In this document: in pieces, positions 43,650 through 48,757 of the stretch
Layout: each line of letters begins with the position of its first letter
How positions within the stretch are numbered: the stretch's first letter is position 1
Assembly (NCBI GenBank): GCA_022567305.1
Contig: JADFHF010000003.1
Coordinates: forward strand, 1 to 64,000
Direction of reading: 5' to 3'
From: Bacteroidota bacterium
GTDB taxonomy: Bacteria; Bacteroidota; Rhodothermia; Rhodothermales; UBA10348
DNA: 64,000 nt
Made by a program: the position numbers and the translations under genes
The notes under the pieces: model-generated
Databases searched by the model: none
Seen by the model: the letters and a program-made list of their open reading frames with translations, nothing else
Told to the model about the DNA's origin: nothing

Positions 43650-45659
43650 CTACCATACGATTTCACCGCCAAAACGCTCCACCAGAGACTGCACTGCGGG
43701 GTTTTCTTCACATTTTATTTTGAGAAACCCACGTGCGTCAAATTCAGAACCGTTCGAGGAGTCTGAATCACGGGCGATATCTTCACGGACTACGAACTGG
43801 AGATCGCTGATTTCAGTCGAGGCCGCCACGGCGAGATGTTTTGACAGTCGGGTTTTTTCGCCTCTCAATATTCGTTCGTGAAACACATCGGGAACGCCGA
43901 TCTCGATCAGGCCGCCCAGAACGGTAATCACTTTCGTATGGCGAAGAAGAGACCCGAGTCTGATCTGTGTCTCCATCGTATCGGTAATCACCTGCGCCCA
44001 GGCATCGGCGATCGGTTCAGCAACTTCAACCGCAACTTCAACCGAAGCCTCCGCAACTAGTATGGCCACCGTACTATCTGAGTCAACTAGTGCGGACTCC
44101 GTACTAACTGTGTTTTTCGATTTTGGGTTGGGGCGCTTCAGTGCCGGAGCGTCAAACGGCAGGCCGAGTGTGGTTGTATCAACTTGGACTGACGCGGGTT
44201 TGTGTGACGGAGTTGGAGAACTGACGGCCGGCTCGGGTGACGCGGATGCTGGCTCGGGTGACGCGGATGCTGGCTCGGGTGACTCGGGCGCTGGCTCGGG
44301 TGACACGGATGCTGGCTCGGGTGACTCGGATGCCGAATCGGTATCTTTCGAGAGCGCAGGTTTTTCCTTGGGCTCCGCTTGCTCGGGTTTTTCTGGAATA
44401 TTTTCTGGGACTGCCGGCTCAAACGCCTCCGGTTTCGCATTCTTTTTCGCCGACTTTGGATCCTGGCCCGAGGGCTGTAGCGCAGAAGGATCACGAACAA
44501 GGGCTTCGAGCTTTTCGATTTTTTCGAGCGCTGTCTTGATGTCCACCGCGGATGGCAGACTCGCCATCTTCAGCAGGGCCATTTCCAGGCGTAATCGGGG
44601 CTGACGCGTATTTTTCAGCGAGTCCGCTGTTTCTCCGACAATATGCACGTATCTGAGGAGCACAGATTCAGTAAATCGTTTTGACTCCGTCTCGTATCTA
44701 TCCTGAATCTGAGCGGTCGCTTCTAAAAGCGTTCGATCACCGACGGTTTTGATAACGAGTAAATTTCGAAAGTGCTCGGCGAGGCCATCCAAAAACTCCT
44801 GAAGGTCGTATCCGGACTGAACAATCTGCTCAACGATTCGAATCATTCGACCCACGTCGTTCTTCTCTGCGGCGTCGGATACGTCGAAATACAAATCGGC
44901 GTCAACGACTCCAAGCGCCTTGATAAGCTCGTCGTAGACCAATTCCGTCCCGCAGAGCGAAACTGCCTGATCGAAAACGGACATTGCATCCCGCAGAGCG
45001 CCGTCGCCCCTTCGGGCAATAAGCATTAGGGAGGCCTCGTCTGAGGAGATCTTTTCTTCTTTGCAAATCTGTTTGAGGCGAGCAATGATCTCCGGGATGG
45101 CGATTCGCCTGAAATCGAACCGCTGGCATCTGGACTGAATGGTGGGGAGAACCTTGTGCGGCTCCGTGGTTGCAAATATGAATGATACATACGGTGGTGG
45201 CTCTTCGAGCGTCTTCAGAAGCGCATTGAAGGCCGATGTCGTAAGCATGTGGACTTCATCGATGATGTAGACTTTCATCTTGGCGCCCTGGGGCGGAATG
45301 CGCACCGAGTCGCGCAAGTCGCGGGCGTCATCCACCTTGTTGTATGACGCCGCGTCTATTTCGATGATATTAAGGTTGCGGCCCTCTTCAAACGACTTGC
45401 AGGATTCGCACGTTCGGCATGGTTCGGCGTTATCCTCCCGCTCATCAAGCGGAGTTGTGCAATTGATGGCTTTCGCCAGAATCCGTGCAGCCGTTGTTTT
45501 TCCAACGCCCCTGGGTCCCGTGAACATGTAGGCGTGTGCGAGCCGGTCGAGTCGGATGGCATTCTTGAGCGTCTCGGAGACGTGCTCCTGCGAGACGATT
45601 TCACCAAAAAGCTGGGGACGATATTTCCGCGCCGTTACGAGGTAGGTCTGCTTGCTCAT
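43650..45659 (-). CDS. dnaX: DNA polymerase III subunits gamma/tau
   Basis: 669 residues. The clamp-loader ATPase has Walker A GPRGVGKTT (48-56), a four-cysteine zinc module (NC...PCRTCESC), the Walker B region IIDEVHMLTTSAFNALLKTLEEPP and sensor/lid domains through about residue 370. A low-complexity linker (about 385-500) contains five seven-residue repeats of the form SPEPASA. The final ~120 residues (WAQVITDTMETQIRLGSLLRH to the end) are a tau-type C-terminal domain. The start ATG at 45659 replaces a TTG two codons upstream. No clear slippage site for gamma production was noticed. Confidence 0.96.
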   Translation of the reverse strand: MSKQTYLVTARKYRPQLFGEIVSQEHVSETLKNAIRLDRLAHAYMFTGPRGVGKTTAARILAKAINCTTPLDEREDNAEPCRTCESCKSFEEGRNLNIIEIDAASYNKVDDARDLRDSVRIPPQGAKMKVYIIDEVHMLTTSAFNALLKTLEEPPPYVSFIFATTEPHKVLPTIQSRCQRFDFRRIAIPEIIARLKQICKEEKISSDEASLMLIARRGDGALRDAMSVFDQAVSLCGTELVYDELIKALGVVDADLYFDVSDAAEKNDVGRMIRIVEQIVQSGYDLQEFLDGLAEHFRNLLVIKTVGDRTLLEATAQIQDRYETESKRFTESVLLRYVHIVGETADSLKNTRQPRLRLEMALLKMASLPSAVDIKTALEKIEKLEALVRDPSALQPSGQDPKSAKKNAKPEAFEPAVPENIPEKPEQAEPKEKPALSKDTDSASESPEPASVSPEPAPESPEPASASPEPASASPEPAVSSPTPSHKPASVQVDTTTLGLPFDAPALKRPNPKSKNTVSTESALVDSDSTVAILVAEASVEVAVEVAEPIADAWAQVITDTMETQIRLGSLLRHTKVITVLGGLIEIGVPDVFHERILRGEKTRLSKHLAVAASTEISDLQFVVREDIARDSDSSNGSEFDARGFLKIKCEENPAVQSLVERFGGEIVW
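44230..44334. repeat. Five 21-bp tandem repeats inside dnaX
   Basis: Five consecutive 21-base units starting GGCTCGGGTGAC differ at only a few bases. On the dnaX strand they encode a seven-residue repeat close to SPEPASA in the linker between the ATPase core and the tau C-terminal domain. Length variation between strains is expected at such a site. Confidence 0.92.
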
Positions 45660-45858
45660 GTACAATTGTCAGACAGGAAAAAGGGGATGATTTACGCGCT
45701 CAAATGAGCCATCCAACATACCCTCTTAACGGAATGAGTGCAAGCTCGCGTTCGAGTTGTGTATCAGAAATTTCGAATGGCGGATTCGGTGACCATAGAC
45801 GGATCTGCACGCCTTCAAGTGACCGAACAAGAGGAGAATGAAAAAGAAACCGTTCAGC

Positions 45859-46185
45859 TCAGACCCCGACCGCTCGAAGCGCCGCGCCGGTGATCGACCG
45901 AACGATCGCAGCCCGAAATTCGTCGATTCGGGCTAGCGCCAGGCCGGCAGCTTTTAGCGTTTCCATTTCGATTACAGAAATGCGAGAATCTACCAACCAT
46001 TCGTATTCCTGTGACGAAATAGTGCCCGCAGCCAGCATCGCATTCCATCTGGCAAGATCTTGACTGGATTTTCGGAGGGCATCTCGAGCAGAATCCAATA
46101 TCACTTCTCGCATCGAAGGCAAGTTCTCTCGGATCTGGTCAGCGAGGATGGACATGACCTCATCTAAAAACGATTGGTCGCTCAC
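45859..46185 (-). CDS. Uncharacterised helical protein (four-gene cluster)
   Basis: 108 residues, predicted almost wholly helical and cytosolic. Sequence runs from FLDEVMSILADQIRENLPSMREVILDSARDAL through the middle TISSQEYEWLVDSRISVIEMETLKAAGLALARIDEFR. I do not recognise a named family, although the pattern (a 'tissqEyewLv' turn, then a long helix with ALKxAGLA) gives the impression of a conserved small protein. It is the last gene of a minus-strand cluster with two lipoproteins and a small membrane protein. A gap of about 200 bases separates it from dnaX. Confidence 0.75.
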   Translation of the reverse strand: MSDQSFLDEVMSILADQIRENLPSMREVILDSARDALRKSSQDLARWNAMLAAGTISSQEYEWLVDSRISVIEMETLKAAGLALARIDEFRAAIVRSITGAALRAVGV

Positions 46186-46203
46186 GGGTACACCTTCTGG
46201 GTT

Positions 46204-46632
46204 TTAATCACTAAACCGGATCTTACCACTTTCAAGGCCGATAACGGTATCGAAAGCATCGGCGATCAGGAGTTGCGATTGCTGGATGAACGGGTAACTC
46301 AACTGCCGCTCCGATTCCCACCGGAAAAGAAAACCACCGATCAAGTTTCTGTCGGGATCGAGAAGAATCTCCCACTGTTTTGTTGAGTGTTCGTTACGAG
46401 GTCTCCCTTTTGCAAATTCATATGCTTTCTCAAGATCTATCTTGAGTTTTTCAACATGTTTCAGATGGTCCAAGAACGGGTTCTCTGCTCGATCCATCAA
46501 CGAAAGTGATTCGACTTTGAGCTCCGTCGCGTACCGATATGCTTGTTGGCTGAACGGGGCAATACTTGGCGCGCAAGACGCCACGGCGCAGCCAAACAGG
46601 ATCGCAAGGATCGTCTTGTACAAGACTTTCAT
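46204..46632 (-). CDS. Uncharacterised lipoprotein (four-gene cluster)
   Basis: 142 residues with a lipoprotein signal (MKVLYKTILAILFGCAVASC, lipobox VASC). The mature part is mainly helical, starting PFSQQAYRYATELKVESLSLMDRA; the region HLKHVEKLKIDLEKAYEFAKGRP suggests a two-helix hairpin. No family recognised. It lies between a second lipoprotein and the 108-residue helical gene, all on one strand, 18 bases before the latter. Confidence 0.78.
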   Translation of the reverse strand: MKVLYKTILAILFGCAVASCAPSIAPFSQQAYRYATELKVESLSLMDRAENPFLDHLKHVEKLKIDLEKAYEFAKGRPRNEHSTKQWEILLDPDRNLIGGFLFRWESERQLSYPFIQQSQLLIADAFDTVIGLESGKIRFSD

Positions 46633-46768
46633 GCTGATTTTCGAATTTCGAACCGCATCCCGGTGCAGTCCGAAAAAGAGAGAGTCGCTTCCCTAACGGA
46701 AACGAAAAAGGAGCGTCCAGTACGACGGATTCGAGGTACTATCAGAAAAAAACGAAAGACGGTGACGC

Positions 46769-47287
46769 CTACCGATGTAGCGCCAACGCGATTTCCTGCC
46801 CGCCGTAATGAAGAATCAGATCCTGATTCTCTTTCGGTACGCTGGTGAGGTCGAACTCGGCATGGTAAACGTATACACAGGCCGTGGTAGGATCGGCCAG
46901 TACAGGAATCTGCCGGGCGCCAAACCATTCCAAGACGGGCAAGCAAACCGGCCCCTCCAGTCTTGCATATTTGGCGCTTACGGGTGCTGCCTGTCCATGC
47001 GTGAGTGTTAACGATTGGGCTTGACTGGGACGGAGAAACGGACGGTCCTCACCCGGTCGGATATTCGGATCTTCATCCAGTTCCAGTTCTACGATGGCAT
47101 GAATTCCTGTTGCGCAGGAGTCCACCGCGAGCCAGGCCGTATCGGGAAGTTCGACTTCGAAGAGCGGTTTGAACTCGCGATGGTCAAAATGAGTGACACG
47201 CGAGGCGCTGCAGCCTGCGAATATGATGGGCAGGCCGACAACGAGGAAAAAAATGCAGATCCTACTATTAGGCCGGAGCCGTAACAT
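46769..47287 (-). CDS. Uncharacterised lipoprotein with paired cysteines (four-gene cluster)
   Basis: 172 residues. The signal peptide ends with lipobox FAGC. The mature part contains three further cysteines (VDSCATG, GPVCLPV, TTACVYV) and is predicted beta-rich: LFEVELPDTAWLAVDSC, HAIVELELDEDPNI, DLILHYGGQEIALAL. I recognise no family. Its first codons overlap the 3' end of the small membrane protein gene by 20 bases in another frame, suggesting coupled expression. Confidence 0.78.
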   Translation of the reverse strand: MLRLRPNSRICIFFLVVGLPIIFAGCSASRVTHFDHREFKPLFEVELPDTAWLAVDSCATGIHAIVELELDEDPNIRPGEDRPFLRPSQAQSLTLTHGQAAPVSAKYARLEGPVCLPVLEWFGARQIPVLADPTTACVYVYHAEFDLTSVPKENQDLILHYGGQEIALALHR

Positions 47288-47510
47288 CCAAAAACAAGTT
47301 TCCGAGTCCCGCGAATACCGACGACAGTTCAGTGATACCGGACTCCAACAGTGCGGAGATTAAATCCGATGTAGCCATCGCCATAACGACAACGACGAAG
47401 ACTACGCCCATGTATAGAGACTCGGCGATCGTGAAAAGAAGGAATTTTCTGAGGGGCTCAGGAAGACCCGCCACATCTAAATGTGGCCATGGAGAATAAT
47501 CGACTGGCAT
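47268..47510 (-). CDS. Small membrane protein (four-gene cluster)
   Basis: 80 residues with a strong hydrophobic helix (about 27-47, LFTIAESLYMGVVFVVVVMAMA) and a weaker second one towards the C-terminus (LSSVFAGLGNLFLDV). No family recognised. It is the first gene of the minus-strand cluster and lies about 150 bases from the divergent dinB. It is too short for a transporter; a membrane anchor or small partner protein is more likely. Confidence 0.72.
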   Translation of the reverse strand: MPVDYSPWPHLDVAGLPEPLRKFLLFTIAESLYMGVVFVVVVMAMATSDLISALLESGITELSSVFAGLGNLFLDVTAPA

Positions 47511-47662: not shown

Positions 47663-48757
47663 GTGCGTAAGATCTTACACATAGACATGGATGCGTTCTA
47701 CGCTTCAGTAGAACAGCGCGACAACCCTGAGCTTAAAGGCAAGCCGGTGGCCGTCGGTGGCACTTCAAAACGGGGCGTCGTGGCAGCCGCCAGCTATGAA
47801 GCGCGAGCTTGCGGAGTTCGATCGGCGATGCCGTCATCCGTGGCGGCGAGAAAATGTCCGGATCTGATTTTCGTAAAGACCCGATTTGATGTCTATAAGG
47901 CGGTGTCGAAAGAGCTCCGAGGCATCTTTAAGCGATATACGGATCTGGTCGAACCACTCTCCTTGGATGAGGCGTATTTGGATGTATCGGAGCCCAAGAT
48001 ATCTGCGGGGTCCGCAACGTCGATCGCTCGTGAGATCAAAAAGGCCATTCTTAGAGAGACCGAGTTAACAGCCTCCGCCGGCGTCTCGTTTAATAAGTTT
48101 CTGGCGAAACTGGGATCGGACTTTCAAAAACCGGACGGACTTACGGTGATTACCCCTGCGAACGCGTCAGCCTTCATCGAGCGGCTCCCCATCGAAAAAT
48201 TCTACGGGATCGGTCCGGTCACCGCGGGGCGCATGCACGACATCGGAGTTCAGACCGGTAGAGATCTTTTACGACTCTCAGAAGATGAATTGGCTGCGAG
48301 GTTCGGCAAGTCGGGGCGGTACTACTATAAAATGGCCAGGTGCGAAGACGATCGCGAGGTGAAACCGAGCCGTGAACGCAAGTCCGTAGGCGCCGAACGC
48401 ACTTTCGAAGAGGATATTTCCGATGTCGGAGAGCTTCTCAGTCGGTTGGATCGGATTGCAGATAGCGTCGCAGAGCGGCTCGCACAATCCGGAGTTGCCG
48501 GGCATACGGTGACGCTCAAAATCAAGTATCACGACTTCGAAGTGAATACGAGACAGATGACGTCGAAACACCCGGTAGGCAGTCGGGAAGAATTGATCGA
48601 ACTTGGAGATCTTCTGCTCCGCAATTCACCAGCACCACCGAAGCGACCTGTTCGACTTCTCGGTCTCAGCGTCTCTAAACTGTGCCCGATTAGTGGTGGG
48701 CCGGCTGAAGAACAGTTGGCTTTGGACTTTAGGACTGACGCCGGAGCAATCGGTTGA
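47663..48757 (+). CDS. dinB: DNA polymerase IV (Y-family translesion polymerase)
   Basis: 364 residues. It copies across damaged bases with low fidelity. Family motifs are HIDMDAFYASVEQRDNPELKGKPVAVGG with catalytic Asp residues, SYEARACGVRSAMPS, LVEPLSLDEAYLDVS with the second catalytic Asp-Glu pair, and FNKFLAKLGSDFQKPDGLTVI. A helix-hairpin-helix (FYGIGPVTAGRMHDIGVQTGRDLL) and the little-finger domain follow. There is no obvious clamp-binding peptide at the C-terminus. The start is a GTG at 47663. I did not find an SOS-type operator that I could name. Confidence 0.96.
   Translation: MRKILHIDMDAFYASVEQRDNPELKGKPVAVGGTSKRGVVAAASYEARACGVRSAMPSSVAARKCPDLIFVKTRFDVYKAVSKELRGIFKRYTDLVEPLSLDEAYLDVSEPKISAGSATSIAREIKKAILRETELTASAGVSFNKFLAKLGSDFQKPDGLTVITPANASAFIERLPIEKFYGIGPVTAGRMHDIGVQTGRDLLRLSEDELAARFGKSGRYYYKMARCEDDREVKPSRERKSVGAERTFEEDISDVGELLSRLDRIADSVAERLAQSGVAGHTVTLKIKYHDFEVNTRQMTSKHPVGSREELIELGDLLLRNSPAPPKRPVRLLGLSVSKLCPISGGPAEEQLALDFRTDAGAIG

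What the first reader, a model, noticed from the sequence alone, without database searches (positions are those of the whole stretch)
45859..47510. Four-gene cluster of unknown small envelope proteins
A small membrane protein, two lipoproteins (one with three cysteines besides the lipid anchor) and a helical cytosolic protein are encoded in tight order on one strand, divergent from dinB. None resembles a family I can name. Together they could form a trans-envelope complex with parts in the cytosol, inner membrane and lipoprotein layer.
Basis: partly seen in the sequence, partly recalled or inferred. Interest (0 to 1): 0.6.

Follow-up and report, generated by a model that had tools for sequence, protein, structure and literature searches.

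The report
Conserved lipoprotein-helical protein gene pair
Two of the four genes form a small, never-separated gene pair (a membrane-anchored lipoprotein and a helical partner) that is fixed beside dinB and dnaX in this bacterial family and elsewhere sits beside cell-wall- and membrane-cutting enzymes in prophages and phage-tail clusters, while the other two genes are newcomers found only in this genome.

Summary
The four ORFs are real, but they are not one four-gene unit. The lipoprotein of 142 aa (LIPO) and the helical protein of 108 aa (HEL) form a strict two-gene module. Both genes were found in 87 of 88 loci examined, always LIPO then HEL on one strand; the other locus had lost LIPO. In the genome's own family, a Rhodothermales lineage, LIPO is in 25 of 27 genomes and HEL in 26 of 27; the pair lies between divergent dinB and dnaX wherever the contig shows both flanks. 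The small membrane protein (TM80) and the cysteine-bearing lipoprotein (lipo172) were found only in this genome (lipo172 in 1 of 114 order genomes; TM80 has one weak positional match), and a terminator-like hairpin separates them from the pair. Outside the family the pair recurs beside a phage-type endolysin in 24 IMG/VR contigs, DUF5675 plus a holin in a provirus, amidases, patatins and once a Cas10 locus. LIPO is predicted to be a lipid-anchored helical bundle. It matches PADLOC's "Csx23" model (E=1e-11) but lacks the features of the characterised Vibrio Csx23. Best reading: an uncharacterised envelope module that works with lytic enzymes. Mechanism unproven.

The parts
46204..46632 (-). LIPO: lipoprotein of 142 aa (lipobox, Cys20 invariant), first gene of the conserved pair; predicted helical bundle
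   Evidence: 23-member alignment, 16 invariant columns; AF2 mean pLDDT 93.8; 87/87 loci paired with HEL; PADLOC Csx23 model E=1.2e-11
45859..46185 (-). HEL: 108-aa soluble helical protein, second gene of the conserved pair; weak SHOCT-like central segment
   Evidence: 26/27 family genomes; AF2, four helices, mean pLDDT 82.9; SHOCT best E=1e-4 in other members, 0.12 in this one, below Pfam's cut-off
46769..47287 (-). lipo172: orphan lipoprotein of 172 aa with three cysteines besides the lipid anchor; not part of the conserved module
   Evidence: 1/27 family genomes; 1/114 order genomes; nothing in IMG/VR scan, plasmids, PDB
47268..47510 (-). TM80: small protein with one transmembrane segment, overlaps lipo172 by 20 bp; restricted to this genome, possibly with a positional counterpart in one sister genus
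   Evidence: (E=0.078 match G004:C14:180760-180918, just upstream of LIPO there)
46757..46770 (-). terminator-like hairpin with T-run directly after lipo172, between the orphan pair and LIPO-HEL
   Evidence: consensus match only; 5 such sites found, 2.4 expected in shuffles
47663..48757 (+). dinB (context): divergent neighbour of the pair throughout the family
43650..45665 (-). dnaX (context): downstream neighbour of HEL throughout the family, followed by ybaB and recR

Best explanation
The cluster is two things side by side. (1) LIPO-HEL is a conserved two-gene module: LIPO is a lipid-anchored helical bundle outside the inner membrane, HEL a small helical, partly SHOCT-like protein inside the cell. 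I propose that the pair acts at the envelope together with enzymes that cut the wall or the membrane lipids (endolysins, amidases, patatins), either assisting or restraining them, and that it moves with prophages, phage-tail clusters and conflict loci. In this Rhodothermales family it has become a vertically kept single-copy gene pair at one chromosomal site (dinB || LIPO-HEL - dnaX - ybaB - recR). (2) TM80 and lipo172 are a lineage-specific pair inserted between dinB and LIPO. Shown: the pairing, order, distribution, neighbours, orphan status. Inferred from sequence or model: the lipid anchor, the fold, HEL's cytosolic place. Inferred from neighbours only: the link to lytic enzymes and the function. 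My confidence is about 0.95 in the anatomy and about 0.3 in the mechanism; the figure given is for the whole statement.
For: Pairing: 87 of 88 loci carry both genes, all 87 LIPO then HEL on one strand; the set includes loci from searches in two other phyla. Residency: LIPO 25/27 and HEL 26/27 family genomes, between dinB and dnaX wherever both flanks are on the contig, and family LIPOs are monophyletic (support 0.94). Lytic neighbours: Peptidase_M15 endolysin directly upstream in 24 IMG/VR contigs with tail sheath, baseplate-like and holin genes; Phage_holin_4_1 and DUF5675 in a provirus; Patatin and Amidase_2; Hydrolase_2. Of 54 patatins in 22 pair-bearing genomes 5 lie within 3 kb of the pair against 0.1 expected, and of 6 DUF5675 genes 2 against 0.01. 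Fold: top viral matches to the LIPO model are phage proteins, two named 'Lipoprotein', best E=8.7e-4, TM 0.68/0.72.
Against: The enzyme families were picked after seeing the neighbours, so the enrichment figures are optimistic, and independent lineages are few (three for patatin, two for DUF5675). Many copies, including the window's, have no lytic gene adjacent, and stable residency in the family does not look like a dedicated lysis gene. The phage-tail evidence comes from one flavobacterial-type clade plus one provirus. One family genome keeps HEL without LIPO. LIPO and HEL are predicted on opposite sides of the membrane with no bridging segment, and no interaction was tested.
Confidence: 0.4

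Rival explanations
1. LIPO-HEL is a housekeeping envelope-maintenance pair (for example stress sensing coupled to an inner-leaflet partner, like PspA-type systems), and its presence in prophages, tail clusters and defence islands is recruitment of a host gene.
For: Fixed single-copy site in the family and vertical LIPO tree. In one relative the pair is followed by a CesT_Tir-like and a PspA/IM30 gene, an arrangement whose CesT/Tir-PspA dyad is described in PMC11237479, where SHOCT-like domains are proposed to anchor proteins to the inner leaflet. Weak structural resemblance of LIPO to periplasmic sensor bundles such as NarX and McpN, TM 0.5-0.7, not significant.
Against: Patchy distribution in the phylum (27/297 genomes) and frequent mobile contexts are unusual for a housekeeping function; the PspA context was seen once.
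Confidence: 0.3
2. LIPO-HEL is a defence or counter-defence module, with LIPO a type III CRISPR-associated protein of the Csx23 kind.
For: PADLOC Csx23 model matches LIPO at E=1.2e-11 (window) to 8.8e-22 (L075) over nearly the whole length. In one relative the pair lies upstream of Cas10/Csm1; in another beside a SIR2-domain gene.
Against: No cas gene was seen beside the pair in the other neighbourhoods read. The characterised Vibrio Csx23 has two N-terminal transmembrane helices and a cytoplasmic cA4-binding beta-grasp-like domain (PMC11014256); LIPO has one signal segment with lipobox and is all-helical.
Confidence: 0.15
3. All four genes form one lineage-specific operon making a trans-envelope complex.
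For: Same strand, short spacing, all look like small envelope proteins.
Against: Two genes are found nowhere else while two are widely conserved as a pair; 136 bp and a terminator-like hairpin separate them.
Confidence: 0.08

Closest known systems
PADLOC model PDLC01072 'Csx23' (unknown function)
   Same: Profile match to LIPO over nearly the full length: window E=1.2e-11, L125 1.9e-10, L075 8.8e-22; one relative sits next to Cas10/Csm1.
   Different: No cas genes among the window neighbours read; the obligatory HEL partner is not part of the model; most copies of the pair are not beside type III CRISPR.
Vibrio cholerae Csx23 (cA4-activated membrane effector, PMC11014256)
   Same: Shares only the name given by PADLOC; both are membrane-attached and small.
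   Different: Two transmembrane helices plus a cytoplasmic cA4-binding beta-grasp-like domain against a lipobox signal and an all-helical bundle; no sequence match of LIPO profiles to any PDB chain.
Lipoproteins of uncultured Caudovirales phages (A0A6J7WI42, A0A6J5KVH2, A0A6J5LUS3)
   Same: Best matches to the LIPO model in the viral library, TM 0.56-0.72, length 127-134 aa, two named lipoprotein.
   Different: Only the first is below E=0.001; their function and neighbours are unknown to me; no PHROG family matches LIPO.
Two-component spanins (i-spanin and o-spanin lipoprotein)
   Same: A lipoprotein gene next to an endolysin gene in tail and provirus clusters.
   Different: HEL has no transmembrane segment, LIPO is a large helical bundle, and the genes are consecutive, not nested.

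Membership tests
Csx23 (PADLOC PDLC01072) | match to the PADLOC profile | tested here: met
   window LIPO E=1.2e-11, profile 27-137 of 143
Csx23 (Vibrio, characterised) | N-terminal domain with two transmembrane helices | tested here: not met
   one hydrophobic segment (residues 7-25) ending at the lipobox; invariant Cys20 in 23 relatives
Csx23 (Vibrio, characterised) | cytoplasmic beta-grasp-like cA4-binding domain | tested here: not met
   all-helical model, mean pLDDT 93.8, no strands; no PDB sequence match. cA4 binding itself not tested
Csx23 | linkage to type III CRISPR loci | tested here: inconclusive
   Cas10/Csm1 downstream in L143; not seen in the other neighbourhoods read, where cas genes were not searched for by profile; the window was not scanned for cas genes
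Two-component spanin | inner-membrane subunit with N-terminal transmembrane segment | tested here: not met
   HEL highest 19-residue hydropathy 1.13
Two-component spanin | outer-membrane lipoprotein subunit | tested here: inconclusive
   lipobox present; outer- versus inner-membrane sorting not testable here
SHOCT domain protein (HEL) | score over the Pfam SHOCT cut-off (27 bits) | tested here: not met
   window 12.6 bits; best other member E=1e-4, seen in 2 of 18
Phage lysis cassette | adjacent endolysin and holin | tested here: not met
   window neighbours are dinB and dnaX; met in flavobacterial-type tail clusters and one provirus

The most novel reading that the evidence does not exclude
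LIPO-HEL is an unrecognised, widely travelling envelope-conflict module, shared by flavobacterial-type phage-tail clusters, prophages and defence loci and domesticated as a core gene pair in Rhodothermales, in which a periplasmic helical-bundle lipoprotein and an inner partner control when wall or membrane enzymes act.
Probability: 0.3. Interest if true: 0.7.

Novelty: new variant of a known kind. Interest (0 to 1): 0.5.

Why it matters
A two-gene unit that stays together through at least Bacteroidota-type genomes, sampled genomes of two further phyla and predicted proviruses is likely to do something the two proteins do jointly, yet neither half has a described function and HEL has no family model in any library searched. 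If it controls lysis or envelope damage, it would add a component to the poorly known lysis machinery of Bacteroidota phages and tail-like particles. It may also show that PADLOC's 'Csx23' label covers proteins unlike the characterised Vibrio effector, which matters for automated defence-system calls.

Tried and rejected
A single conserved four-gene cluster: rejected. SOS regulation through a shared LexA-like box upstream of dinB: no common palindrome found in family upstream regions; this does not exclude an unusual box. Pfam, NCBIfam and PHROG assignment of LIPO or HEL: none at useful scores. PDB fold search for both models: nothing at E<=0.001. Isolate phage and plasmid collections with window or relative proteins: no match, so the viral link rests on IMG/VR contigs and on context. 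Viral scans with A3 and A4 failed because the alignments had no conserved stretch. LIPO-HEL as spanin: HEL lacks a transmembrane segment. Amphipathic C-terminal helix of HEL as membrane anchor: moments low to moderate and not consistent. Literature searches returned no paper I recognised as describing this pair, but the library is open-access only.

Full report
Observation. The four ORFs are present on the minus strand between dinB and dnaX. TM80 and lipo172 overlap by 20 bp; LIPO and HEL are 18 bp apart; 136 bp lie between the two pairs, with a terminator-like hairpin directly after lipo172 (consensus match only). In-frame codon scores exceed the other five frames for all four, least clearly for lipo172.

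The four genes have two histories. In the 27 genomes of the same family, HEL is found in 26 and LIPO in 25. In the retrieved family neighbourhoods the pair lies beside dinB on one side and dnaX on the other, with dnaX followed by ybaB and recR, wherever the contig reaches those genes; a few contigs end first (L032 lacks dnaX, L034 lacks dinB). From the dinB start to the first matched LIPO position is 62-248 bp in the relatives measured, 482 bp in G004, and about 1 kb in the window. Lipo172 is in 1 of 27 family genomes and 1 of 114 order genomes, with nothing in the IMG/VR scan, plasmids or PDB. TM80 has only two hits near E=0.08-0.1 in the family; one of them, in G004, lies just upstream of LIPO and encodes a similar small membrane protein, so TM80 may be slightly older than lipo172.

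LIPO-HEL is a strict pair. A search with the LIPO alignment found 34 loci in the GTDB contigs, titled Rhodothermales, Balneolaceae, Salinibacter, Ignavibacteriaceae and others, with a few titled Deltaproteobacteria, Desulfonema and Methylococcaceae. HEL is in 27 of 297 sampled genomes of the phylum, and in 3 of 399 and 5 of 297 sampled genomes of two other phyla. Across the 88 loci put together, 87 have both genes, always LIPO then HEL on the same strand. The exception, L055, keeps HEL and has lost LIPO. One further HEL fragment, L145, stands alone and was not in that set. Pairwise distances of the two proteins correlate at 0.87, which shared descent alone could also give. Family LIPOs are monophyletic with support 0.94; the shorter HEL alignment does not recover the family as a clade.

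Predicted structure. LIPO gives a confident all-helical model, mean pLDDT 93.8; HEL four helices, mean pLDDT 82.9. No PDB structure matches either at E<=0.001. In the viral library the three best LIPO matches are uncultured Caudovirales phage proteins, two named 'Lipoprotein'; only the first is below 0.001. HEL has a weak SHOCT-like stretch, below the Pfam cut-off in this member.

Neighbours outside the family. In 24 IMG/VR contigs of one flavobacterial-type clade (the host name is my reading; the records name none), and in related genomes, the order is Peptidase_M15 endolysin, LIPO, HEL, then baseplate-like and fibre genes, with tail sheath upstream and holin downstream (the sheath, tube and holin were checked by profile in L153 only). 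Head genes were not seen in the flanks read, so tail-only particle or prophage is not settled. A provirus contig has Phage_holin_4_1, DUF5675, a lipoprotein, then the pair. Two genomes of one family of the same class have Patatin before and an Amidase_2-type gene after the pair; L075 has Patatin after and DUF5675 before the pair; L143 has Hydrolase_2 after the pair and Cas10/Csm1 further on. L124 has umuC, L110 a SIR2-domain gene, L078 CesT_Tir and PspA. Five of 54 patatins and two of six DUF5675 genes in 22 pair-bearing genomes lie within 3 kb of the pair, against 0.1 and 0.01 expected. These families were chosen after the neighbours were seen, so the figures overstate the case; by lineage there are three patatin and two DUF5675 associations.

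Relation to known families. PADLOC's Csx23 model matches LIPO at E=1.2e-11 and L075's LIPO at 8.8e-22. The characterised Vibrio Csx23 has two transmembrane helices and a cA4-binding beta-grasp-like domain (PMC11014256), features LIPO does not show. I could not scan the Vibrio protein with the PADLOC model, so whether one name covers two families is open. The pair is therefore not filed as Csx23.

Verdict. Ordinary in one respect, since two genes are lineage-restricted and two are conserved hypotheticals, but the obligatory pairing, the fixed site in one family and the lytic and phage contexts elsewhere make LIPO-HEL worth testing. The function is inferred from neighbours only.

Noticed in passing
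L030:4973-5155 (own genome, contig C93): Second, degraded LIPO copy: in-frame TAG, then fused to what reads like the C-terminal part of an IS110-type transposase (read by eye, no profile search). No HEL follows it.
   Followed up: partly
L055 (G019): HEL kept between dinB and dnaX while LIPO is absent; no remnant seen in the three forward frames of the short interval examined.
   Followed up: partly
L143:8573-14510: LIPO-HEL, then a cell-wall Hydrolase_2 gene, an unidentified gene and Cas10/Csm1, so a type III CRISPR locus follows the pair.
   Followed up: partly
L144:7436-8829: An unassigned 179-aa protein with an apparent membrane segment is encoded between LIPO and HEL; it looks SLATT-like by eye but has no Pfam match.
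   Followed up: partly
L110:4749-13798: Pair flanked by what reads like a type IIG restriction gene upstream and a SIR2-domain gene plus a HerA-like ATPase downstream: a defence-island setting (only SIR2 confirmed by Pfam).
   Followed up: partly
L124:126-2666: Pair convergent with umuC (Pfam-confirmed) and a umuD-like gene, a second case of a Y-family polymerase neighbour.
   Followed up: partly
window 44138-44500, within dnaX: dnaX carries a repetitive proline- and serine-rich linker (SPEPA-type repeats).
   Followed up: no
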